Made by a program: the position numbers and the translations under genes. The notes below the pieces were generated by a model. It searched no databases and was not told where the DNA came from. It saw only the letters and a program-made list of their open reading frames with translations. 25,312 nucleotides of DNA, taken from contig DJDY01000214.1 in the NCBI GenBank assembly GCA_002435585.1, positions 2,554-27,865 of the forward strand. Reading direction: 5' to 3'. The DNA comes from Lachnospira sp. UBA5912 (GTDB lineage: Bacteria > Bacillota > Clostridia > Lachnospirales > Lachnospiraceae). Positions 11,238 to 24,689 of the stretch are shown here, one piece after another. Positions within the stretch are counted from its first letter, which is position 1. Every line of letters begins with the position of its first letter.

Positions 11238-14117
11238 CTACATACCATAATGCTCTTTGAGCACTTCGCATATATCCTTAAGGCTGACCGGTTTAGATAT
11301 ATATCCATTCATACCGGCCTCCATACATCTCTGCCTGTCACTCTCAAATGTATTAGCAGTCATTGCAAATATAAGTATATCTTTATCCTGTCTGCCTGAC
11401 TTTCTTATGCATCTGGTTGCCTCAACACCATCCATAACCGGCATCTGCATATCCATAAATATGGCAATATACTCATTCACTGCTGAATTCATATATTTTT
11501 CAACACCACTTTTACCATTATCTGCCCAGTCAACATGAAGTCCTATGCTTTCAATCAGTTCTATTGCTATCTGTGCATTAAGTGCATTATCCTCTACAAG
11601 AAGTACCTTCTTACCTGCATAACCCTTAACCGTATCAGAATCCACGCTGGTGATATCATCCTTGACAGAACGAAGAATCAGTTCCTTCTGTCTGTCAGAT
11701 GCTGCTCTGAATGGTATATCTACCATAAATGTTGAGCCTTTACCCTCTTCACTTTCAACTGACAGTTTTCCATTCATAAGTTCTGTAAGACCTTTAACAA
11801 CAGACATTCCAAGACCGGTTCCTTCTGTTACTGATATACGGCTGTCTTCAGCTCTTGTATATTCCTCACATATATGCTTAAGAAACTCTCTACTCATACC
11901 TATTCCGTTATCCGTACAAGTAAAACGATACATTTCTTCATCAAGTTTTTTAATACTTACTTTAATGCTTCCTTTGCTATCTGTATACTTAATTGCATTG
12001 GATACTATATTAACAACAATCTGTCTATATCTGTTAGAATCGCCTACAACAACTGCATCTATTGCATCATTATCTATAACAATATTCTGTTCCTTCTTTT
12101 CTGCAAGCGGCTTTAAAAGATTAACACTTTCCTCAACACATTCACCTATATTGAAAGCCTTTTGTGAAAGTTCCATATGTCCATATTCTAGCTGGTTAAT
12201 ATCAAGAATAGAATTAACTAGAGTCAGAAGATAAGTTCCCTCTGTTGTTATATTATCAAGTGCATTATCAAGCTTGTCAGGATTATGTTTATATTTACGC
12301 GCTATCTGTGTCATGCCAAGCACAACATTAAGTGGTGTCCTGATATCATGACTCATCTTAGAAAAGAAGTTCAGCTTGGCATCGTTGGCCTTCTTGGCTT
12401 CTGTAAGTGCAAGTGATAACTGGTCAGATATATGTCTCTGTCTGTTCTTTGCCACTACAGACTGTATATATAACAGTATGAAAAATAGTAATGCAAATGC
12501 TACGGCCACAGTCGCAAACAAATATATCGGATTATCAAAAAGATATGCTATAAACGTAGGTTCATTTTCATTTTCAAGATAATTCTGTACAATCTCATAG
12601 CTTTTCTGTGCTGCTACTTCTTCAAGAGTTTTATCCCATATTCCATAAAAATTATAATTATCTGATGACTTAACACCCATGCATATATTAACAAGTGCTC
12701 CTGGCACTATATCTACACTAAAACGGTTCTGCGTATCATTGCGTGCAAGCTTCTGCGCTGTATAACTAAAAAGTAAGGCTCCGTCTACCTTGCCATCTTT
12801 TATCTGTTCAATACATTGTTGTGTACCATCAACAGATGATAATTCAGCCTGTGACCATGCATCGCTGATAGCTTCTTTCATATCAGCATTATCGCCAACA
12901 ACTGCTATCTTGTTTATCCTTGGCGAAGCTCCTCTTCTCCTTACTACAGATAAAGTTGTCGTTGTATACGGGTTAGTAGCTTTATATATGTATTTCCCAT
13001 TATTTCCATAATATCCGTACATATCCATCCATATATCAACAGCACCATCTGATAAAATCTGTTCATATTCAGCTTTTGTAGATACGTATATTATCTTATA
13101 GTCAAGATCTAACTTTTCAGCTGTAGCTATAAACATATCAGCTGCAATACCACAAGGCTTTCCATTATCATACCACGAATAAGGGTTATTATCAGGATTC
13201 ATAACTGCCCGTATTACTGTGCCATCTTCCCTCATCTGTTCAAGAAGAGCTTCCTCATCAGATGTCAGCCTTGTATTAGAACTTGGTGAACCATAATACA
13301 TATTGTACAGATCACTTCTCCAGTTTGGATTCTTTATATTCATGGCATCTATAGCCTTATCTATGTTCTCTAACACAGACTTATCTTCTTTTCTTGCCAT
13401 GAAGTAATATGGTGTCTCACCAAAATCTTCAACTATCTGTTCATCTTCCGGTGTGCTTATATAGCTGCTAACAAGTGCATCAACATCTCCACTTATGAGT
13501 GCATTAGCAAGTTCAGTTGGCGTATCATAATATATTATTTCACACGAAAATCCTTTATGCTCTACAAACTGTTTAAAGCTGTCATTATATGTATGTCTTG
13601 TAAGAAGCCCTACCCTAAGACCATCATACGTTGAGTAATCTCCTGCAACCACCTTGTCATTGCCAACCTTTACGTTCATACAAGTCTTAGCTGTTATTGC
13701 CGGATGCTTGGAAAAACAGAACTCTTCTTCACGTTCTGCGGTTTTTCTGGCTGCTGTATATATATCCAGTTCGCCATTTCTTAACATCTGTTCACACTCA
13801 TTAGCACTCTTATCATAGCCAGCATATGAAAATGTACACTGCATATAATGAGATATATCCTGCATCATCTCATATCCATAACCATACATCTTTCCATTCT
13901 CATCCTGCATATTATAACAATCAAAAGCATAATAAGCCACTCTGTAATCTGGCGTATATGAACTTGGAACCTCTTCAGCATATGCTTCCGATATATATGC
14001 TGCATTTGTAATCGCGTTATAATTCACTGCATATACAGGCGCTACACATAATATTACCTGTATTGTAACTAATAATAATACAATTATTCTTTTAAAATAC
14101 ACACTTCTCTTGTTCAT
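11238..14117 (-). CDS. Hybrid sensor histidine kinase with two extracellular solute-binding domains and a receiver domain
   Basis: A 959-residue membrane sensor. Order of parts: signal/anchor helix (about 8-30); first family-3 solute-binding-like domain (about 55-275); second one (about 300-520, including a [30 protein letters not shown] start); transmembrane helix (about 531-552); HisKA with phospho-acceptor H590 in [10 protein letters not shown]; HATPase with an N-box near [17 protein letters not shown] and GTGLGMS; and a C-terminal receiver (about 835-955) with phospho-acceptor D889 in [11 protein letters not shown]. The binding domains suggest detection of a small polar ligand such as an amino acid. 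It follows the HD-GYP response regulator by 95 bases, which is its likely partner. Confidence 0.92.
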
Positions 14118-14212
14118 TTAAACCCTTTTAATCATTATCTTCCTACTAAATAGCACCAAATGACCATATATTTAAAGTCATATATAAAAACCATACATAT
14201 ATAAACTATATT

Positions 14213-15337
14213 TTAAGAAACTTCTTTATTCTTATTATCTGGTCTGCCTTCTTTTAACGTCCATCTTAATATATCATTCTTTGCGGCAGCAAAACATTCA
14301 AGAATATCTGGTGAAAACACACCACATTCACCATCATATATCATCTTAATGGCATGCTCAACATCATATGCCTGCTTATATACTCTCTTACTTATAAGTG
14401 CATCATATACATCTACAACAGATACTACCTGCGCCCATAATGGAATCTCATCACCTTTTTTGCCATCAGGATATCCCTTACCATCGTATCTTTCATGATG
14501 ATATCTGCATATATCCCAGCAATATTTAAAGAAATCACTATCTTCCATCTTGAATCTGTCTAATATATCACAGCCTATAGTTGTATGAGTCTTCATAATC
14601 TCGAACTCTTCCGGTGTAAGTCTTCCTGGCTTTAAAAGAATCTTATCAGGTATACCAATCTTTCCAATATCGTGAAGTGCCGATGCTGATACCATCTGGT
14701 CTATATCATCTTTTGTATAATTACATTCAGGATGCATTCTGACCCATGTTTCAAGCATAATCCTTGTAAATGTTGACACCCTCTTTATATGCTCGCCTGA
14801 CTCAAGGCTTCTGAATTCAACAACTGAACTTAATGCGTTAATAAGGAATTCGTTATTCTTCTCAAGCTTTGACTGTGATTCAATAAGTGCTCTGTTCTTG
14901 TTAGCCAGCATCTCTTTCATATTGTTACGCTGCTGATACAATTCTATGATATTAAGTGCTCTTCGTACTACAACCCTTTCAACAACCGGCTTATATATAA
15001 TATCAGCAACTCCATATTCATATGCCTGTTCATCGCTCTGTGCCGTTGCTTCCCCTGTTATCATAATAACAGGAATCTTCTCAAGCAGCTCTTCATCTTT
15101 CATATACTCAAGTACTTCCATACCTGACTTCTTTGGCATAACAAGATCAAGAAATATAAGTACAAGACCATCCTCGCACTTACTCATGCTATCAGCTTCA
15201 CGGATATTCTCCTGCTTTATAAGTTCTATCGTCTGTTCACCATCTGCCGCCTCAAGAATCTCATATCTGTTCTTAAACATCTCTTTTAGTAAACTTCTGT
15301 TTATCTCGGCATCATCTGCTATAAGTATTTTCTGCAT
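14213..15337 (-). CDS. Response regulator with HD-GYP output domain
   Basis: A 374-residue cytoplasmic protein: N-terminal receiver (about 1-125) with acidic D8/D9, phospho-acceptor D64 in FLDLVMP, T94 and K116, a coiled linker (about 130-165), and an HD-GYP domain (about 170-345). The latter has H183, H222-D223 in LHDIGK, H251, H280-H281 and the signature DGKGYPDG (285-292). The RpfG-like architecture predicts phosphorylation-controlled cyclic-di-GMP hydrolysis, inferred from the family. The ATG at 15335-15337 is chosen because GGAGG lies 5 bases upstream; an in-frame upstream extension of 18 residues is hydrophobic and unlike a receiver. The hybrid kinase gene follows downstream. Confidence 0.92.
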   Translation of the reverse strand: MQKILIADDAEINRSLLKEMFKNRYEILEAADGEQTIELIKQENIREADSMSKCEDGLVLIFLDLVMPKKSGMEVLEYMKDEELLEKIPVIMITGEATAQSDEQAYEYGVADIIYKPVVERVVVRRALNIIELYQQRNNMKEMLANKNRALIESQSKLEKNNEFLINALSSVVEFRSLESGEHIKRVSTFTRIMLETWVRMHPECNYTKDDIDQMVSASALHDIGKIGIPDKILLKPGRLTPEEFEIMKTHTTIGCDILDRFKMEDSDFFKYCWDICRYHHERYDGKGYPDGKKGDEIPLWAQVVSVVDVYDALISKRVYKQAYDVEHAIKMIYDGECGVFSPDILECFAAAKNDILRWTLKEGRPDNKNKEVS

Positions 15338-15583
15338 GCTGACCTCCATCATAACAATAAGGATACTATGCAGAAATAATCTGTATAGCATCCTTTAATC
15401 GTAAGCTTCTCCCGCTTAATCTATGCACTTTATATAAATATAACAATGTTTGGGCTTATAATAAATACATCAAAATACAATCCCTAATATATTCTTATTA
15501 TTTATATTAATTCACACTCAATGCTACAATTATTTTACCTATCGTACCATATTACCAGGATAAAAGCAACAAAATAATTGCAA

Positions 15584-17293
15584 TCAGATTGTCAGTTTTT
15601 CTGCAACCACCCTGCATCTCTTCTTACAAAACGCCATACCATAAATCAATATATCATCTCTCTGTTCATTTCTTAAGTATGTGTCATACCGCTTGTCCTT
15701 AATCTGCTGGATGGCTTCTTCACAGGCTTTATCCATTCCCTCATACGTTGCAGAATGTTTTAACTCAACAACAATGCCTGCTTTATAATCTTCCGGTTCA
15801 ACGATAATGTCTGCAAAGCCATCTCCAGATTCTACATTAGACTTAACCTCCCAATCAGCATTTGTTGACAAAATGCCTGTTAATAACATATGGTAAGAAT
15901 TTTCTTTTTCACCTTTACGGCTCTTTGTATCAAAAATGCTTATTGTACTGTCAAGCATACGATTAAGATAATCTTCTATATCTTCTGAATTACCTTCCTG
16001 AAAATCTTTCCAGAACGCCTGAAGCTTATTGGTATCTCTTCGTAATGATGCATTTAGCCATTCCCTAATCTGTCTTTTATATACAGTCCTTACTTCTTCG
16101 TTCGGTATCTTAAGACTGAAGACACCATTTTTTGCCTTCTTATCCTGTGTCAGATATCCTGTTGTAAATAATACACTCCATATATTCTCAATGCTGTTAT
16201 CTATTTCATCATACGTCAGCTCCTGATGAATTTCTTTCTCAATTACCCCACCAGCAACAAGCCTTTCAATTTCACTCTTTGTTTTTCTATCCGCCCTGTA
16301 TATCAGCCTTTTAACAAGTTCATTGGAACTTGTATTTATCCAGAAAGCCTGTGGTTCTGCATCCGAAGATGCATTAAGACTATCCACATAATTAATTACA
16401 TCCCATGGACAATATACATCTGCATCACCAAAGTGATAACCATCATACCATTCCTTAGTTTCTTTCAAATGTTCATCCTTATTATAGTAATTTAACAGCT
16501 TCTTTACTTCTTCCTCAGTAAATCCAAACTGCTCATCAAACCTGCAATCAGTAATTGATAGAATTTTAAAGTTATTCAATCCTGTAAATATACTTTCCTT
16601 AGATATTCTAAGACAACCTGTTAATACTGCAAATTGCAGCGCATCATTTGTCTTTAAAGCATTGCCTAACATACCTCTGATTAAAGAAACCATTTCTCTG
16701 TAATAACCATTCTGAAATGCTTTATCTAAAGGAACATCATACTCATCAATTAATATAATTGCCTTCTGACCATAATGTTTATATAATAACTGCGATAATA
16801 ACTTAAGTGAAGATGTCAGCCTATTCTTGTTCCACGAACATTGTCCACTATTCAATTCAATCAGACCATTAAACCTTATTTTATCATTATCTGATAACCT
16901 ATCGCTGTCCGATAGAAATTCAAAATGCTCTGCCACATTCCCTAACAGCTCTGCCATCTCACACTCTGCTTCTTCATAAGTAAGCCCTTCTACACTTTTT
17001 AATGAAATAAATATAACTGGATACTTCCCCATATACTCTTCACATAACTTCTGATTTCCAGTAATATAAAGTCCATTAAACAAACTTTTATCTGTCCCTA
17101 TTTCAAAGAAACTTCTAAGCATACTCATATTCAAAGTTTTACCAAAACGTCTTGGGCGTGTAAAAAGATTAACTTTTCCCCAGTTTTCAAGAAGCTGTTC
17201 TATTAATTTTGTTTTGTCTACATAATAAAAATCAGATTTTCGTATTTTCTCAAAATCATCAATTCCAACTGGCAATCTTAATGGTTCAGTCAT
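15584..17293 (-). CDS. AAA-ATPase-like protein with C-terminal PD-(D/E)XK nuclease domain (PF09820/PF08011 type)
   Basis: A 569-residue protein of a family common in Lachnospiraceae and Bacteroidetes and of unknown function. The N-terminus has the family signature, LPVGIDDFEKIRKSDFYYVDKT, then an atypical Walker A, RPRRFGKT (46-53), and Walker B IDEYD (182-186). The C-terminus has a PD-(D/E)XK nuclease-like core with D495, then E510-L-K512. It lies in a run of defence-type genes, 78 bases after the DUF262 gene, with AGGAG about 10 bases before its ATG. It may belong to the same transcript or be an independent gene. The family occurs as many paralogues per genome, so a link to defence is not certain. 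Confidence 0.85.
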   Translation of the reverse strand: MTEPLRLPVGIDDFEKIRKSDFYYVDKTKLIEQLLENWGKVNLFTRPRRFGKTLNMSMLRSFFEIGTDKSLFNGLYITGNQKLCEEYMGKYPVIFISLKSVEGLTYEEAECEMAELLGNVAEHFEFLSDSDRLSDNDKIRFNGLIELNSGQCSWNKNRLTSSLKLLSQLLYKHYGQKAIILIDEYDVPLDKAFQNGYYREMVSLIRGMLGNALKTNDALQFAVLTGCLRISKESIFTGLNNFKILSITDCRFDEQFGFTEEEVKKLLNYYNKDEHLKETKEWYDGYHFGDADVYCPWDVINYVDSLNASSDAEPQAFWINTSSNELVKRLIYRADRKTKSEIERLVAGGVIEKEIHQELTYDEIDNSIENIWSVLFTTGYLTQDKKAKNGVFSLKIPNEEVRTVYKRQIREWLNASLRRDTNKLQAFWKDFQEGNSEDIEDYLNRMLDSTISIFDTKSRKGEKENSYHMLLTGILSTNADWEVKSNVESGDGFADIIVEPEDYKAGIVVELKHSATYEGMDKACEEAIQQIKDKRYDTYLRNEQRDDILIYGMAFCKKRCRVVAEKLTI

Positions 17294-17371
17294 ATATGAT
17301 AGGCTCCTTTCTGGGTAACAATGTGCCCTTGATAATTCATTATTTAAATAAGTCTAATTACTGAAAAGCTA

Positions 17372-18691
17372 TCATTTCATATCATTCAGCTCTGCTAATT
17401 TCTTTGCAAAAAAGCCTACCTGACGATTTTCATCCAAAAACCATTTTTCTTTAATATGTCTATTAATATCAAGACATTCTTCTTCTATTTCTTTTATTTC
17501 TCCTGTCTTTGATATCGTAAGATTTTCTGCATCAATATCATATCTTGACATAATCAGACCTGTTATTATATATAATGAATGATATTTACTTTCTATTAAT
17601 TCCATATCACTTTCACTCAGATATGATATAAGCCAGTTTATCGTTTCAACAATTATTTTGTTTAAATTTTTTACAAACTCACTTATATCATCTTTTGTAT
17701 GCTCTTTAGAATATAATAAATCTACAGCCTTAACAATTCTATTAGAAGATAAACTTATTATTGATGAATATAATTCAAATGCTATTGTATCATTATCATA
17801 ATATTTTTTTATATTATTTTTATACTTAACACATTGTATAAGTCGCTTGTAGGCTGAATAATGAAATACTTTATCACTATCCTTAATACAACATATAATA
17901 TTATTAAGTCCTATCAAATTCTTAAATATATCAAACTGTCCCTTATCTTTAGCTGCACTTATCTCATAATCTTCTTTGATAAGCTCCAATTCTCTTAAAA
18001 ATGCATCATACTCATCTACAAGTATTGTTTCATTAAGATAATTATTAATCCAGACTGATTGCAATATTTCATATTGAGATAAAGCAACACTGCCAGTATT
18101 AATATTTTTAAACAACTCTGGCAAATCTTCCTTATCACCTTTATATATTATAAGAACTATGTCATCATGCATTATTCTTATATTCTGCTGTAATATATCT
18201 AATAACTCAGCAATTAAGTCCAAGTCATTCAAATATTTAAAAATGTCCGGTTTTGCTTTAATTTTATTATAAAGAACCGTCATTTTTTCATATTGATACA
18301 ATCCATTAAGTCCCTCATACCATCCTTTTATGCAGCTCTTTAATTGGCTCTCTCTTATTCCCAAATCATTTTTGGTTATAAAACCTTTAATATCATCAGA
18401 TATTTTGCTGTAATACTCTTTAAACCCGACTATTTCAGATGGACTTGAAAGATACTGCTGCAATGTATTAATTCTCTGTAATCCATCTATAATATAATAC
18501 TGACCTTCATCTTCATAAAGAGTTAATGCACCTATTGGAAACCCTTTGAATAGGGAAGATATAAGCTGATATTTTTTATTGCTTTTCCAAACGAAGCTTC
18601 TCTGAAAATCTGGTATAGTCAACTTATATGCTGTTAAAAGCTTTTTAATTGTTGTCTGATCCAATACAAACTCCTTTGTCTTATTCTCCAT
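17372..18691 (-). CDS. DUF262 domain protein (ParB/Srx-like, GmrS-like) without HNH domain
   Basis: A 439-residue protein. The N-terminal DUF262 domain shows IPDFQRSFVW (26-35), LISSLFKGFPIGAL, and IIDGLQRINTL with the nucleotide-binding-type DGLQR (69-73). Further on, NINTGSVALSQYEIL is the usual second DUF262 block. In GmrSD-type modification-dependent restriction enzymes DUF262 is joined to a DUF1524 HNH nuclease. Here the C-terminal half has no HNH motif, while a separate HNH gene lies 124 bases upstream. The ATG at 18689-18691 is chosen because AAGGAG lies 11 bases before it; a TTG three codons earlier is only 2 bases from that site. The gene is markedly AT-rich. Function is inferred from context only. 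Confidence 0.8.
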   Translation of the reverse strand: MENKTKEFVLDQTTIKKLLTAYKLTIPDFQRSFVWKSNKKYQLISSLFKGFPIGALTLYEDEGQYYIIDGLQRINTLQQYLSSPSEIVGFKEYYSKISDDIKGFITKNDLGIRESQLKSCIKGWYEGLNGLYQYEKMTVLYNKIKAKPDIFKYLNDLDLIAELLDILQQNIRIMHDDIVLIIYKGDKEDLPELFKNINTGSVALSQYEILQSVWINNYLNETILVDEYDAFLRELELIKEDYEISAAKDKGQFDIFKNLIGLNNIICCIKDSDKVFHYSAYKRLIQCVKYKNNIKKYYDNDTIAFELYSSIISLSSNRIVKAVDLLYSKEHTKDDISEFVKNLNKIIVETINWLISYLSESDMELIESKYHSLYIITGLIMSRYDIDAENLTISKTGEIKEIEEECLDINRHIKEKWFLDENRQVGFFAKKLAELNDMK

Positions 18692-18815
18692 TACTTTCAA
18701 TTCTCCTTTTATAATATGTAAAAACGGACAAAAATATTATCCTTGTTGAACTCTTATCATCATTTTTAAGTATATCATAATATCCATCATCATTAACGAT
18801 ATCTCTAAAAAATTT

Positions 18816-19334
18816 TTATCTATAATTATTTAGGTCTGTTCTATCCAACTTATACATATCTATCATATAAGCTGCCTTCTCTTCTTCACTCTTTGTTAAA
18901 CCATTTGCAACTTTTATAGTTCCATCCATCTTAAATTCAAAATATTTAGATATATCCTTTACTTTTGTAGGGTCTAAATATTTATTTTTATCATAAGGAT
19001 ATTCATTTCTTTTAGTATTACATGTTTTACAGGCACATAAAAGATTTTTCCATTCAAATATTTTACACGGTGTACTTACCTTAGTTTGTATATGTTCAAC
19101 AGTCATTTCCGAATTATAATCCATAATTATTCTTGTACAAAATGAACATCTTCCACCTGTCATATTAAAAAACTCTTCTTTTGTTTCAGGTGTATTATAT
19201 TTATATTTCGACTTATTATCATTGTAAAATTTGTATGCTTCTTTAACAGACATATCTTTTATTAATAGATTAAATTCATCATTTGTCTTTTTTAAATCCT
19301 TTAATGACGATTTTTTTCTTTGTATATATTCCAT
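18816..19334 (-). CDS. HNH endonuclease, PtuB-like (Septu type)
   Basis: A 172-residue protein with a zinc-bound HNH core: C63-x2-C66, catalytic E80-H81 in TVEHIQ, N97 in WKNLLCACKTC, and C102-x2-C105. The flanking layout, with a charged helical N-terminus and a C-terminal FEFKMDGTI segment followed by helices ending in LDRTDLNN, resembles PtuB of the Septu anti-phage system and the related retron-associated HNH family. It begins one base after the ATPase stop codon with AGGAG inside the ATPase gene, so expression is coupled. It is probably a DNA or RNA nuclease activated through the ATPase when phage is sensed. PtuB identity is inferred from motifs and order. Confidence 0.8.
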   Translation of the reverse strand: MEYIQRKKSSLKDLKKTNDEFNLLIKDMSVKEAYKFYNDNKSKYKYNTPETKEEFFNMTGGRCSFCTRIIMDYNSEMTVEHIQTKVSTPCKIFEWKNLLCACKTCNTKRNEYPYDKNKYLDPTKVKDISKYFEFKMDGTIKVANGLTKSEEEKAAYMIDMYKLDRTDLNNYR

Positions 19335-19335
19335 A

Positions 19336-20298
19336 TTACTCTACTCCTAATTTCACCTCTGCTTTAGCAACAAGTCCCGGATATTTAGCTTTTACATTAG
19401 CATATTGTTCACTTAAAATCTCTAAGTCCTTTACAATAACATCCCTATTATATTCTTCTCCACAAATATAATCTCCCAGCCTGTTAATAATCTCTCCCGC
19501 TTCCTTAGGAAATTCTTCAACATTAAAATAAACTTCATAAATATTATCTAAATCTTTATAATACAAATCTGCATTAATTTCATTTAAAATTCCATTATCT
19601 AATTGAAACTTTCTTATATTATAATATCTTGATAATAATAATGGCGAATGTGTTGTAAACACAAAAGAACATTTTGAAAAATCTTCTTTAAACTTTTGCA
19701 ACATACGACTCTGTACATAAACATGTAAAAATGCTTCAATTTCATCTATCATAACAATCGCACTTGTATCGCACAAAAGCTGCTTCAGCTTGTCATATTT
19801 AATATCTTCTATATCTTTATCCCATGTAAACAACCATATAATACTGCAATAAATATTTATAATATTCTCAACGCCATCACTCTGTCTTCTGTCAAAATCA
19901 AATTCATAATCCTCTCCAAACATATATATTATAGCATTTTTAATAACTTGTCTTACCGCATTATTCCTTAACAGATTCTCCCTTATAAGCCTCAAATGTA
20001 AATCAAACTCATTATAACTGTCTTTTTTATATGCAAGAAATTCTTCTATATCTTTTATTTGTGTACTACTTGTATGTGCCTGTCTTACAATCACCCTGTT
20101 GGTAGGAATAAAAAGCGACCTTATATATTCGCCATCATTTACAATACATTTAATATTTTCTTCATCTATAACTTTATCTAATTCTTTAAGAATTGTTGTT
20201 TTTCCTGAATTATTATATCCATAAATACCTATTAACGATTCTGTTACTTCTATGTCCTGTTCTCTAATAACATCGTTACCTTTTAACTTAAATACCAT
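19336..20298 (-). CDS. AAA ATPase, PtuA-like (Septu type)
   Basis: A 320-residue ATPase of the OLD/SMC-like class (AAA_15/AAA_21). Visible motifs are Walker A GYNNSGKT (27-34), an ABC-type signature SDGVEN (140-145), Walker B IVMIDEIE (181-188) with D185 and E186, and switch H217 in FTTHSPLLL. There is no TOPRIM nuclease domain, which argues against an OLD nuclease and for a PtuA-like partner of the downstream HNH gene. The coiled region between Walker A and the signature is short, so the protein is at the small end for PtuA. GGGGAG lies 6-8 bases before the ATG. It is first gene of the cassette and has an upstream sequence shared with two neighbouring operons. Confidence 0.82.
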   Translation of the reverse strand: MVFKLKGNDVIREQDIEVTESLIGIYGYNNSGKTTILKELDKVIDEENIKCIVNDGEYIRSLFIPTNRVIVRQAHTSSTQIKDIEEFLAYKKDSYNEFDLHLRLIRENLLRNNAVRQVIKNAIIYMFGEDYEFDFDRRQSDGVENIINIYCSIIWLFTWDKDIEDIKYDKLKQLLCDTSAIVMIDEIEAFLHVYVQSRMLQKFKEDFSKCSFVFTTHSPLLLSRYYNIRKFQLDNGILNEINADLYYKDLDNIYEVYFNVEEFPKEAGEIINRLGDYICGEEYNRDVIVKDLEILSEQYANVKAKYPGLVAKAEVKLGVE

Positions 20299-20336
20299 TA
20301 TCTCTCCCCTTAATAAATTGTGTTTATTATAAAGCT

Positions 20337-20369
20337 TTATATATTCTTAAAATAAGGATATCATATTTT
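20337..20369 (-). promoter_or_regulatory. Shared upstream element of the Septu-like cassette
   Basis: This 33-base block matches the block at 21825-21857 (upstream of the DUF6978 gene) at 28 of 33 positions without gaps. The conserved core on the minus strand is AAAATATGATA, then TTTAAGAATA-ATAA. It contains a TGATATCCT that could be an extended -10 box. It lies 38 bases before the ATPase ATG. Confidence 0.6.
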
Positions 20370-20429
20370 TTTTACAATTCGATTTTATATAAGTAATGTA
20401 TGTTAGATTTCATATATATTAATTACGCT

Positions 20430-20484
20430 ATAAATAAAAATTGTACCACAAGATACTCATCCATTACCTTGTAGTACAATTTTT
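20430..20484. repeat. Repeat copy 1 with 17-bp hairpin, possible bidirectional terminator
   Basis: Bases 20430-20455 are identical to 25251-25276 (26 bases). In this copy the 17-base arm at 20436-20452 pairs with 20468-20484 with a single mismatch (a G-U pair in RNA) around a 15-base loop. With A-rich and T-rich ends it can serve as a terminator in either direction, and it lies 160 bases past the DUF1828 stop. The left arm recurs near the window end but the right arm there is diverged. Confidence 0.65.
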
Positions 20485-20642
20485 AACACAATACTATACT
20501 ATATATTATTTATATATTGAGCTACAACAACCTTTTCTCCCAATATTTAACCATAGGAAAGAACACACGCTACTCATTATGCACTCAATTCCTGTACATA
20601 CTTATCTTTTTCTGTCCATAATGCAGTATTTATACCATACTC

Positions 20643-21362
20643 TTAAATTGCCCTGATTGCATCTTCAGATATTTTCTTGTCTGTATCTTGTATAAATGTG
20701 TATAACTTTGTTCCTTGTTGGCGCATATCCTTGGTATCATTCCATGAGAATATAATATTTCTTGCTGCATTTAAATCCATATTATTTACTACATTTATTA
20801 ATCTTTCAGGTGTTCTTTTTGAACGCGCAACAGCAAAATCATAATGGGTTGCCAGCTTACCTTTTCCTATCAGACATATATTATTAACATATCTTATATC
20901 ATTTTTATCGAAAAAATTCTGAACATCATCTAAAAAGATTGATTGTACATTACTTCTGGATAAATAAAACATATCACTCACTTTTACCATACACTGTGCT
21001 AACATATGCTTTTTTACTGGTAAATCATTCTCTGTGCAATCTACCATCAATTCGTTATGTTCTGATCTATTAATGCCATATGATGAAACAATAAAGTCTA
21101 ATAAAGACCTTCTTTTAGCACTCGCCCCAATATCAAATCCACCTAATTTTAAGTCACTAATTGTATATCCATCATCTGTAATCGTATACCATCTATTTCC
21201 TTTATCCAATATATAAATATCCACATAATCATTATTTCTATCTAAAAAAGGTAATGTTATACGATAAATATTGTCATTAACCTTATATTGACTAATATTC
21301 TGTTTTAACCAATCTATATATTTTTTCCCATAATCCTTTTCTATCTGCTGTTTCATCATCAT
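20643..21362 (-). CDS. DUF1828/DUF1829 domain protein
   Basis: A 239-residue protein. The N-terminal half matches DUF1828, with YVDIYILDKGNRWYTITDDGYTISDLKLGGFDI (about 46-78). The C-terminal half fits DUF1829, with YDFAVARSKRTPERLINVVNNM and FSWNDTKDMR. Biochemical function is unknown to me. The ATG overlaps the stop of the preceding DUF6978 frame by four bases (ATGA), and the pair looks like a two-gene module. Three consecutive ATG codons begin the frame; the first is used because it is in the overlap. The upstream partner is frameshifted, so this gene may have lost translational coupling. Confidence 0.75.
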   Translation of the reverse strand: MMMKQQIEKDYGKKYIDWLKQNISQYKVNDNIYRITLPFLDRNNDYVDIYILDKGNRWYTITDDGYTISDLKLGGFDIGASAKRRSLLDFIVSSYGINRSEHNELMVDCTENDLPVKKHMLAQCMVKVSDMFYLSRSNVQSIFLDDVQNFFDKNDIRYVNNICLIGKGKLATHYDFAVARSKRTPERLINVVNNMDLNAARNIIFSWNDTKDMRQQGTKLYTFIQDTDKKISEDAIRAI

Positions 21363-21810
21363 ATCACAACCTGTACATTATTAATATTTATATTACAGTA
21401 TTCACAAAATCCAGTAAAAATGTTCATAAATATTATATTGTCTTCATTAAATTTAATCTGAGCAAAATTTTCTAAATCATATGCCCATGGAAAATTTCCT
21501 GTATCATTATCTACCTCTTTATAAATGTGTATATGATTTCTTGATGTCTTTGTACCATCAGGATTTATATAAGGAGGCGAATCTATATCTATCCTTACAA
21601 GTGGTAATTTAGCCAAAGGATATCTGTTTTGCAACTTAAATTTTGATAATTCAATTCTACCACGTCTATCCACATCCAAGAAAAATTTATCATTTGTGCT
21701 TATACTTTTTAAATCAAAAACATCACTTTCACCATTTTATGGTAAGCAAATATTGCTTTTCAAAAAATCTTTTCTAACTCTATTAATTTAAGAAATTCTA
21801 AATTTGTCAA
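21359..21810 (-). pseudogene. DUF6978-like gene broken by frameshifts near its N-terminus
   Basis: A TTG at 21808-21810 with GAGGTGG 7 bases upstream begins TNLEFLKLIELEKIF and then meets TGA after a run of six T. A second frame supplies FEKQYLLTI, and a third gives NGESDVFDLKS and continues uninterrupted to 21359. The downstream part (LDVDRRGRIELSKFKLQNRYP, PLVRIDIDSPPYINPDG, HIHIYKE, WAYDL) has the DUF6978 pattern. Two frame changes, in a T6 and an A4 run, are needed to rebuild one protein of about 150 residues. Either the gene is decaying, the runs are phase-variable, or the assembly has two homopolymer errors. The C-terminal 106-codon frame has only a TTG start with no ribosome site. Confidence 0.65.
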
Positions 21811-21824
21811 CTCTACACCACCTC

Positions 21825-21883
21825 TTATGTATTCTTAAAGTGAGATTATCATATTTTCATTTTCATTTCAATTTAATTTTATC
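21825..21883 (-). promoter_or_regulatory. Shared upstream elements of the DUF6978/DUF1828 module
   Basis: Bases 21825-21857 match the block before the Septu-like ATPase at 28 of 33 positions. Bases 21865-21883 match 24759-24777 before the helicase gene at 17 of 19. On the minus strand TTGAAA, 17 bases, then TAATCT with a TG one base before gives a plausible extended -10 promoter. The block ends 14 bases before the TTG start of the pseudogene. Confidence 0.6.
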
Positions 21884-22014
21884 GTAAACGCACCATACCA
21901 TAAAAGTGCTTTTATCCTATCATTCTTCCTTCCATTAGCAACAACTAATTCTGTAGATGCAGAAGTTTCTTTAGGTATAGGTTGGAGCTTTTACCAAGAT
22001 TCCGAAAGAACATC

Positions 22015-22049
22015 AAAAAAAGAGAGCGTACAGTTTTCCCATACGCTCT
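22015..22049 (-). terminator. Rho-independent terminator of the helicase-nuclease gene
   Basis: On the minus strand AGAGCGTA (22042-22049) pairs with TACGCTCT (22023-22030) around an 11-base loop, followed by CTTTTTTT. It lies about 135 bases after the helicase stop codon. Confidence 0.85.
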
Positions 22050-22184
22050 GATGCTGTGACTGCTATTTAGTTGTTATTATTATGTCGGCACTGTTCAACA
22101 AACTCAAATTAGCAAAATTATACAATAAGCATGACTTTACATAAATCTATTGCTTTTTACTTTCCTTACCTATAATTTATCCCT

Positions 22185-24689
22185 TTATTTCTGTCGTTCA
22201 TACTTAACTGTATACATATTTACAATATCATCTTTTCTAAGTTTATACATATGCAACAATTCATTAATTTTACTTACATCATCAATATTTCCATCTTGGC
22301 AAAGAGCACTATAGAAATCGCGAACATTTTTTCTAAAAAATTCTAGTTCTTTCTCAGTTATCACTCTCATATTGTCGTCTGGTGATGCAACTGCATCAAC
22401 AACGTTAGATGGATGAGCCATTATTGGTATACACTCATTTGGGTATACATAATTTTCCTTAAACCAATTAACCGATCCCGATAATTGATTACAATAATCT
22501 TTTTTTATCGTTTGAGTAGTAGCCTCGGTTTTACATTCAATGACCAAATACTTGCTTGAATCAATTGCCCACAAATTGTCAGGCCCGTATCCTCCTGTTT
22601 CCTTGTCTGGTCTTGAACATGCAAAACCAAGAATTGTTCCTATCTGATTTAGTGCCTCCTCAAACTTTTTGTATTCACTTCCCATACGTAAATTTGACAG
22701 AATTCCATCTATATATATTAACAGTTCATTTAACCCAAGTCTTCGAACAACAAGATTTTTACTGATAGCTTGTGCCTGTGGAATTGTGTTAGTTGTTCTT
22801 TGATACTGTATACCTGCAAGAGGTGACAGAATGGCTGCACTTAAATTTTTACCCGCTTTTAGTATCTCTTGAGAAAGAGCTGGATTTATTTTATTTGTAT
22901 ATTCAGCCTGAATCTGACATAAATATCCTTTAGTTCTTTTGTCATTCTCTGTATCTTTAACCGCCTTAATAGCATTTGCAGCATCAAGCCATTGCATATT
23001 CATAGCTTTTTCAAAAGCCTTTCTCTGCGCAACTATCTTTTCATCCACCTTTGCCTCATTTGAATACTTGACTGCGGCTAAATTCTCTTTACAGGTTGTA
23101 ACCCATTCTTCATCTTTTTCTAATGAATAATTTGCAAGTTCAAATATCTGATCAATTGTTGGCTTTGAGCCTGTTTCACTTACTAATAAATCCCATAATT
23201 TCTTTGAAAGATCATATTGACATCTCGTCGCTGCACTAAAATAATCTATCCCCTTATTTCTTGATAATACATCGGTAAGCTCATCACCCATAAGAACAAT
23301 GCAACATTCATCGTCATTAGAACGAACCCCACGTCCCATACCTTGCTCGATCCTTTGAACTTGCTCCCTCAATAAAGTTGTGTTCTGAGGAGCCACACTT
23401 TGAATATATCGATCCTTAATACTATTTAAAGGTGGAAGTCCATCAATAACCAACATCCTACAAGCATCACCCGGCAAATCAATTCCATCATATCTATTAA
23501 CAAAAATCATTTTTCCTACATGTTTGCCACTCTTTAATGCTGCAACCATTCGATCTATATTATCTTTTGTCGCTGTTCTTAACCCCTTTTCATCCCAAAA
23601 TTTTGCTCTGGAGAAAGAAGGCACAAGTATCACGACGTTATACGTTTCAGCTATTTCCTCAACTTTTTCCCTTATCTCAATCTCCGATATATCACTATTT
23701 ACATATTTAGGGAAAATAATTAACCTATCTCCGATATCATTGGCATTCTCTGGAGTAATAATGTTCTTCATGTCTTCTTTAGCCAATCCTAATGCAGAGA
23801 CAAACACACTATCATCAGCTAATGTTGCACTCATATATATGCGTCTACTTGCTTCTTCGAGACTAGATATCTTTTCTAAATCAATTCCTTTAGGAGATAT
23901 TTCAATTGCAGAAGCAGTAATTATACAATCACAGTTTTCCAGCCCCCTCTCTATTAATGGCAGACCAAAGTATATCTCCTTATTATCACTATTATTATAT
24001 TTCGTTAATATCCTATAAATATTGTCTTGCTGCCGTTGCCATTCCCAATAAGGCACAAGCATATTTTTTCGACAATCCTTCATTTCAACAATATCAATGT
24101 AACTCTTTGGATTATAGTCCTTTAATGAAGAACTAAATATAGCAATTAATTCCTTATAGGTATCTGTATCAGCATCAATTTTTATCATAAATTGACCAAT
24201 GATTTTGTCCATGCAGGCATGTACATCATCAATAATAATACTTCCTATCGGATAATTCCCACTTTCTCTCATACCGAAATAGCTATAGCCATTTACAATA
24301 GTTTGAATAGAAGTAACAAGTATCGCTTTTGAGTTTGAATAGTTATAATCATCTCTATCTTCCGTTACAGAAATTCCCAATCTCTTAGCTTCATCAACGA
24401 CTTGCTTAACCAAATAATTATCAGGCACTACATATATAGCTGGTCCCTTTTCTTCATTTAAACAACTCTGAAGCATAATCAACCCAACTACTGTTTTGCC
24501 ACTACCAGTATTCATTTTTAAAATAACATTTTTTTCATTTCTTATATCAAACCACTTTTTCCAGACTTCACTTTGAACATCTCTGGGATATCCATAACCA
24601 GGTGCTTTTGAAGGTAATGTCATAAATATTTCTCTAGGCTCTATTGTTTTTGTCTTTGCCCTAGAATTAAGTTTCGATAAAAGATTCAT
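22185..24689 (-). CDS. SF2 DEAD/DEAH-type helicase fused to a PD-(D/E)XK nuclease domain
   Basis: An 834-residue protein. The N-terminal helicase has Walker A NTGSGKT (60-66), motif Ia-like YVVPDNYLV (86-94), and a Walker B box IIIDDVH (151-157), a DDVH variant of DEAH. Motif V is NRYDGIDLPG (about 398-407) and motif VI QRIEQGMGRGVRS (about 443-455). The order and the motif V/VI wording resemble Rad3/DinG-like helicases. A helical linker follows (about 480-680). The C-terminal domain has GPDNLW with D704, then E718-C-K720 in VIECKTE, a good PD-(D/E)XK core. AGGAG lies about 9 bases before the ATG. A lone helicase-nuclease in a defence-type region suggests degradation of foreign nucleic acid, but I cannot match it to a named system. 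Confidence 0.85.
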   Translation of the reverse strand: MNLLSKLNSRAKTKTIEPREIFMTLPSKAPGYGYPRDVQSEVWKKWFDIRNEKNVILKMNTGSGKTVVGLIMLQSCLNEEKGPAIYVVPDNYLVKQVVDEAKRLGISVTEDRDDYNYSNSKAILVTSIQTIVNGYSYFGMRESGNYPIGSIIIDDVHACMDKIIGQFMIKIDADTDTYKELIAIFSSSLKDYNPKSYIDIVEMKDCRKNMLVPYWEWQRQQDNIYRILTKYNNSDNKEIYFGLPLIERGLENCDCIITASAIEISPKGIDLEKISSLEEASRRIYMSATLADDSVFVSALGLAKEDMKNIITPENANDIGDRLIIFPKYVNSDISEIEIREKVEEIAETYNVVILVPSFSRAKFWDEKGLRTATKDNIDRMVAALKSGKHVGKMIFVNRYDGIDLPGDACRMLVIDGLPPLNSIKDRYIQSVAPQNTTLLREQVQRIEQGMGRGVRSNDDECCIVLMGDELTDVLSRNKGIDYFSAATRCQYDLSKKLWDLLVSETGSKPTIDQIFELANYSLEKDEEWVTTCKENLAAVKYSNEAKVDEKIVAQRKAFEKAMNMQWLDAANAIKAVKDTENDKRTKGYLCQIQAEYTNKINPALSQEILKAGKNLSAAILSPLAGIQYQRTTNTIPQAQAISKNLVVRRLGLNELLIYIDGILSNLRMGSEYKKFEEALNQIGTILGFACSRPDKETGGYGPDNLWAIDSSKYLVIECKTEATTQTIKKDYCNQLSGSVNWFKENYVYPNECIPIMAHPSNVVDAVASPDDNMRVITEKELEFFRKNVRDFYSALCQDGNIDDVSKINELLHMYKLRKDDIVNMYTVKYERQK

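What the first reader, a model, noticed from the sequence alone, without database searches (positions are those of the whole stretch)
17372..20298. Three-gene ATPase-HNH-DUF262 cassette: a Septu-like system with a GmrS-like third gene
The sequence shows a PtuA-like ATPase and a PtuB-like HNH nuclease one base apart, followed 124 bases later by a DUF262 protein that lacks its usual HNH partner domain. Known Septu consists of PtuA and PtuB; known GmrSD joins DUF262 to an HNH domain. The arrangement here could be a hybrid: DUF262 as a sensor for modified DNA or nucleotide, the shared HNH as effector, and the ATPase as gate. The functional link is inference.
Basis: partly seen in the sequence, partly recalled or inferred. 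Interest (0 to 1): 0.7.

Follow-up and report, generated by a model that had tools for sequence, protein, structure and literature searches.

The report
Septu-like operon with DUF262 gene
A gut bacterium carries a three-gene, probably anti-virus operon in which a known ATPase-nuclease pair travels with a third, nucleotide-binding gene; in this genome the nuclease gene is cut short by a stop codon, which made it look as if a gap separated it from the third gene.

Summary
The three genes are real, where stated, and belong together. Of 13 close genomic relatives found through the DUF262 protein alone, 12 have the same ATPase and HNH genes directly upstream. Of 36 ordinary PtuA-PtuB loci with at least 380 bases visible downstream, none shows a DUF262. 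The ATPase is a short PtuA, the HNH protein a PtuB, and the DUF262 protein has no recognisable nuclease domain. The '124-base gap' is not intergenic: it is the in-frame end of the HNH gene behind a TAA at codon 173. Relatives are full length, and in 6 of 12 they overlap the DUF262 gene by the same 11 bases. This copy of the nuclease is therefore truncated, or the sequence has an error. Most likely mechanism (inferred): PtuA-PtuB is the toxic nuclease complex and DUF262 its NTP-dependent sensor or gate, the place that RT-msDNA holds in type I-A retrons. Close precedents exist (PADLOC NsnABC = Menshen, ptuXYZ). My searches of open papers found no description of PtuA-PtuB-DUF262. New variant of a known kind.

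The parts
19336..20298 (-). PtuA-type ATPase, 320 aa; Walker A GYNNSGKT, Walker B IDE, H-loop THSP present; shorter than ordinary PtuA
18816..19334 (-). PtuB-type HNH protein as ORF, 172 aa, ending at a premature TAA (18818-18816)
   Evidence: PADLOC PtuB 1e-21; TIGR02646 58.1 bits over cut-off 52.15; homologues 215-230 aa in 12 of 12 cassette loci
18681..18815 (-). Remaining 44 codons plus stop of the HNH gene, in frame behind the TAA; fills the apparent gap and overlaps the DUF262 start by 11 bases
   Evidence: 40 of 44 residues identical to P0243; same 11-base overlap in 6 of 12 relatives
17372..18691 (-). Stand-alone DUF262 protein, 439 aa, QR / DGLQR / FxxxN motifs kept, no nuclease domain recognised

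Best explanation
One operon, ATPase-HNH-DUF262, encoding a three-component variant of Septu. Shown by comparison: the three genes form a conserved unit that turns up in unrelated neighbourhoods; ATPase and HNH are PtuA- and PtuB-type; the third protein keeps the DUF262 nucleotide-binding motifs and has no recognisable nuclease domain. Inferred: PtuA and PtuB assemble into a nuclease complex that arrests the infected cell by cutting tRNA or DNA, as reported for other PtuAB pairs; DUF262 is the dedicated sensor and gate that keeps the complex silent until a phage cue (modified DNA or a changed nucleotide pool) acts on it, the role that RT plus msDNA plays in type I-A retrons. In this genome the HNH gene has a premature stop that removes its last 45 residues, so this copy is probably weak or dead.
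For: Linkage 12 of 13 and fixed order; ATPase-HNH and HNH-DUF262 overlaps or short gaps; correlated divergence of the three proteins, r 0.84, 0.86, 0.75, reached by none of 5000 permutations; neighbours not shared (66 flanking proteins of 10 of the 12 loci, commonest Pfam family in 6); 0 of 36 ordinary PtuAB loci with DUF262; PtuA fold. Literature passages: PtuA+PtuB together arrest growth, RT+msDNA neutralise them, tRNA-Tyr is lost (PMC11555353); Septu EcB88 needs Walker and H-N-H residues and cuts tRNA-Tyr (PMC13096335); DUF262 domains use NTP to regulate a nuclease (PMC12137116; PMC10952713).
Against: No functional test. One orphan DUF262 of the subfamily (L019, upstream gene unrelated, DUF262 cut by contig end). 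Five of 12 relatives have a 53-85 base gap before DUF262. Correlated distances could come from vertical descent alone. Flanks of relatives show few defence genes. The sensor role could equally be recognition of modified DNA for restriction. The window's own HNH is truncated.
Confidence: 0.5

Rival explanations
1. It is a Menshen system in permuted gene order: DUF262 = NsnA, ATPase = NsnB, HNH = an HNH-type NsnC effector. (That PADLOC's Nsn models are the Menshen proteins is recalled, not from a call.)
For: NsnA is the best PADLOC hit of the DUF262 protein, 5.1e-21 over residues 20-418. In L152, L153 and L160 NsnA-NsnB-NsnC-type genes stand in the order DUF262-ATPase-third gene. In L153 the third protein hits NsnC 4.7e-85 and also PtuB 1e-9, and its 321-aa ATPase hits PtuA (7.5e-20) better than NsnB (1.4e-15).
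Against: Order differs. Window ATPase and HNH hit PtuA and PtuB models, with no Nsn model among the best 25 shown of 79 and 51. Profile comparison: HNH family against L153 NsnC only 5% probability, against ordinary PtuB profile 98.9%; DUF262 family scores higher against three long DUF262 proteins (115-165) than against NsnA (71-110).
Confidence: 0.2
2. The three proteins form a modification-dependent restriction enzyme: DUF262 recognises modified phage DNA and the HNH protein, in place of the missing DUF1524 domain, cuts that DNA, with the ATPase as motor or clamp.
For: DUF262 is the modification-sensing half of GmrSD, BrxU and GrwA and here lacks DUF1524; one Septu was reported to cut nicked phage DNA (discussion passage).
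Against: PtuB is not a DUF1524 relative by the profiles used; two PtuAB systems act on tRNA-Tyr.
Confidence: 0.2
3. DUF262 is an independent defence gene that merely sits beside a Septu pair.
For: An orphan DUF262 of the subfamily exists (L019); five loci have a gap before the gene.
Against: 12 of 13 linkage, overlap with the HNH gene in 7 of 12, correlated divergence, unshared neighbours.
Confidence: 0.06

Closest known systems
Septu (PtuA-PtuB)
   Same: ATPase and HNH of PtuA/PtuB type, adjacent, same order
   Different: ATPase about 320-350 aa against mostly 370-480 aa in sampled loci; third gene DUF262, seen in 0 of 36 ordinary loci
Menshen (NsnABC; name link recalled)
   Same: DUF262 + PtuA/OLD-like ATPase + third gene; in L153 the third protein is HNH-like
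   Different: Gene order; window ATPase and HNH nearer to PtuA/PtuB
ptuXYZ (PMC11980606, passages)
   Same: DUF262 without DUF1524 plus a PtuA-like ATPase in a three-gene operon
   Different: There DUF262 comes first and the effector is a BECR-fold RNase, not HNH
Type I-A retron (Ec78/Eco7: RT, msDNA, PtuA, PtuB)
   Same: PtuAB effector with an added regulatory module
   Different: No reverse transcriptase among 17 window proteins scanned, no Rfam hit in 14000-24000
GmrSD / BrxU / SspE / DndI
   Same: DUF262 domain; weak whole-length structural alignment
   Different: No DUF1524 domain in the window protein
PADLOC candidate PDC-M55
   Same: Includes an ATPase model (M55A, hit by the NsnB proteins of L152 and L160) and a DUF262 model (M55C, 554 positions)
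   Different: Window DUF262 hits M55C only over about 50 residues (2.2e-9) and M55A is not among the 25 best shown for the window ATPase

Membership tests
Septu | PtuA-type ATPase | tested here: met
   PADLOC 1.8e-22; structural rows 1-20. It is far below the Ec78-type NCBIfam equivalog cut-off (49 of 500 bits)
Septu | Adjacent PtuB-type HNH protein | tested here: met
   PADLOC 1e-21; TIGR02646 58.1 over 52.15 bits, NF041761 66 of 150 bits
Septu | Intact full-length HNH gene in this genome | tested here: not met
   In-frame TAA at codon 173 of 217; catalytic H and the CxxC pairs lie before it
Septu | Anti-phage activity | not testable with these tools
   Needs plating tests
Menshen (NsnABC) | NsnA DUF262 protein | tested here: met
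   NsnA 5.1e-21, but long DUF262 proteins score higher by profile
Menshen (NsnABC) | NsnB ATPase and NsnC protein | tested here: inconclusive
   Only the best 25 of 79 and 51 PADLOC families are shown; all are PtuA/PtuB and other models; HNH against L153 NsnC 5%
Type I-A retron | Reverse transcriptase and msr-msd RNA | tested here: not met
   No RT family among 17 window proteins; no Rfam hit, though Rfam may lack the RNA type
GmrSD type IV restriction | DUF262 domain with QR, DGQQR and FxxxN motifs | tested here: met
   GmrSD_N 2.2e-25; QR, DGLQR, FxxxN invariant in 21; motif names from PMC12137116
GmrSD type IV restriction | DUF1524 His-Me nuclease in the same or partner protein | tested here: not met
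   No such Pfam hit in the three proteins at E<=0.1; the partner is PtuB-type HNH
ptuXYZ | BECR-fold (RelE/YoeB) third protein | tested here: not met
   The third part is HNH/PtuB; no RelE/ParE family among the listed Pfam and NCBIfam hits

The most novel reading that the evidence does not exclude
PtuA-PtuB is a shared toxic engine into which different sensors are plugged. Here DUF262 is a protein-only, NTP-dependent antitoxin and sensor that stands in for the RT-msDNA of type I-A retrons, giving a further PtuAB architecture, with the hazard of the engine visible as truncated HNH alleles.
Probability: 0.4. Interest if true: 0.7.

Novelty: new variant of a known kind. Interest (0 to 1): 0.5.

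Why it matters
The passages read call the trigger of retron-Eco7 unknown. A compact, conserved operon in which a DUF262 protein is tied to PtuAB gives a direct test of whether the PtuAB nuclease is gated by swappable sensors, and would connect Septu, Menshen, ptuXYZ and type I-A retrons as one modular design. It also corrects a naive reading: an apparent spacer between two defence genes is the tail of a broken effector gene.

Tried and rejected

Counts that need care. The 36 ordinary loci come from 46 fetched loci with both an ATPase and an HNH hit, 38 after merging those that share 100-base words, minus L050 and L057 (105 and 6 bases visible downstream). 28 of the 36 show 700 bases or more. 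Loci with only one of the two hits were not counted. DUF262 was sought with the subfamily profile at E<=1e-3. They come from samples of relatives, family, class and order and include the own genome's second Septu (L007). The genome-contig scan needed exact 8-residue words, so distant cassettes are missed; three distant partial matches (two Dietzia, one Dolichospermum) were left out of the 13. One search scored at most 5 candidates for each genome. The distance correlations use 11 loci plus the window (L013, a near copy of L012, left out). Of the 10 HNH clusters under 205 aa several lie on short contigs and may be cut by contig ends.

That PtuA-PtuB-DUF262 is undescribed rests on searches of CC-licensed PMC papers only; subscription papers and preprints were mostly not searched.

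Full report

THE GAP IS A BROKEN GENE END. The HNH ORFs of all 12 cassette relatives are 215-230 aa, and 46 of 56 homologous database clusters are 205 aa or longer. In the window the frame meets TAA at codon 173 and then stays open for 44 codons. Of those 44 residues 40 equal P0243, and of the 172 before the stop 158 do, so there is no extra decay behind the stop: it is recent, or a sequence error. The frame would end at 18681, 11 bases inside the DUF262 gene whose ATG is at 18691. Six of 12 relatives have exactly that overlap, one overlaps by 20, and five have gaps of 53-85 bases. Intact copies exist elsewhere. Other short HNH clusters also exist, among them a 100-aa one on 23 contigs up to 1.3 Mb (P0298); several of the ten are on short contigs and may be artefacts.

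THE THREE GENES ARE A UNIT. A scan of one genome for each of 84,980 species with the DUF262 alignment gave 16 loci: three distant partial matches and 13 close relatives at 49-59% identity. Twelve of the 13 have the ATPase and HNH genes directly upstream in the same order. In the exception, L019, the gene upstream is unrelated and the DUF262 runs to the contig end. From the other side, an HNH search of 397 family genomes found two subfamily members, the own genome and G308, both with DUF262; G308's locus is the same as L008. An ATPase-profile search found only the own genome among 392 of the order and only G308 among 37 of its genus. Of the 20 other species of the genus searched with the ATPase, none has it (G001-G021 are 21 genomes, one with a weak match only). 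The cassette is rare and patchy. Ordinary PtuA-PtuB loci: 0 of 36 with at least 380 bases visible downstream show a DUF262, 0 of 28 with 700 or more. Pairwise distances of the three proteins correlate (r 0.84 ATPase-HNH, 0.86 ATPase-DUF262, 0.75 HNH-DUF262). Flanking genes are mostly ordinary and not shared: of 66 flanking proteins from 10 of the 12 loci the commonest Pfam family occurs in 6, and only a few match defence models.

CLOSEST KNOWN KINDS. PADLOC's nearest model is NsnA, recalled to be the Menshen DUF262 protein. Three fetched loci (L152, L153, L160) carry NsnA-NsnB-NsnC-type genes with DUF262 first. In L153 the third protein carries a CxxC...EH...CxxCN pattern, hits NsnC 4.7e-85 and PtuB 1e-9, and its 321-aa ATPase hits PtuA better than NsnB. 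So the set DUF262 + PtuA-like ATPase + HNH exists in another order. Profile comparison nevertheless puts the window's ATPase and HNH nearest to ordinary PtuA and PtuB, gives only 5% probability for HNH against L153's NsnC, and scores the DUF262 family higher against long DUF262 proteins than against NsnA. The ptuXYZ operon joins a DUF262 protein without DUF1524 to a PtuA-like ATPase and a BECR RNase (PMC11980606, passages). Menshen is described as a DUF262 gene with a predicted OLD nuclease, DUF262 being needed for resistance (PMC10952713, passages).

HOW IT MOST LIKELY WORKS. Passages read: PtuA+PtuB together arrest growth, RT+msDNA neutralise them and tRNA-Tyr is lost (PMC11555353); Septu EcB88 cuts tRNA-Tyr and needs Walker and H-N-H residues (PMC13096335); [quoted passage not shown] DUF262 domains use NTP to control a nuclease (PMC12137116; PMC10952713). 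The best-supported reading is PtuAB as effector and DUF262 as its sensor or gate. The unit and the identity of its parts are shown by comparison; division of labour, trigger and target are inference. In this genome the effector ORF is truncated while ATPase and DUF262 stay open, so this copy is probably weak or dead.

VERDICT. A real, conserved three-gene variant of a known kind, not a chance neighbourhood.

Noticed in passing
window 21359-21830, minus strand: The DUF6978 gene (PADLOC candidate PDC-M24A, beside PDC-M24B at 20643-21362) matches its model only from position 49; stops and a frame change lie upstream, so its 5' end also looks broken.
   Followed up: partly
G000 contig 144, about 25379-26784 (L007, L163): The same assembly has a second, ordinary Septu-type locus whose HNH match contains four in-frame stops while the ATPase frame is open.
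   Followed up: partly
window 22185-24689, minus strand: An 834-aa helicase matches the PADLOC single-gene candidate PDC-S28 at 8.1e-302, so the cassette sits among other candidate defence genes here.
   Followed up: no
database proteins P0161, P0163, P0172, P0187 and others: 52 of 120 listed relatives of the DUF262 protein carry an extra C-terminal domain of about 110 residues (motifs ATGKKRYLI and YYIETHK) that Pfam and PDB profiles do not name.
   Followed up: partly
L153 3205-6137: A DUF262-ATPase-HNH operon in the opposite order to the window's, between Menshen and Septu in its model hits.
   Followed up: partly
database protein P0298: A 100-aa HNH relative lacking its N-terminal half, on 23 contigs up to 1.3 Mb: probably a second, established broken allele.
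   Followed up: no
database proteins P0158, P0179, P0180: Relatives of the DUF262 protein of 304 aa without a Pfam DUF262 domain, covering 69% of the query: possible N-terminally broken alleles.
   Followed up: no
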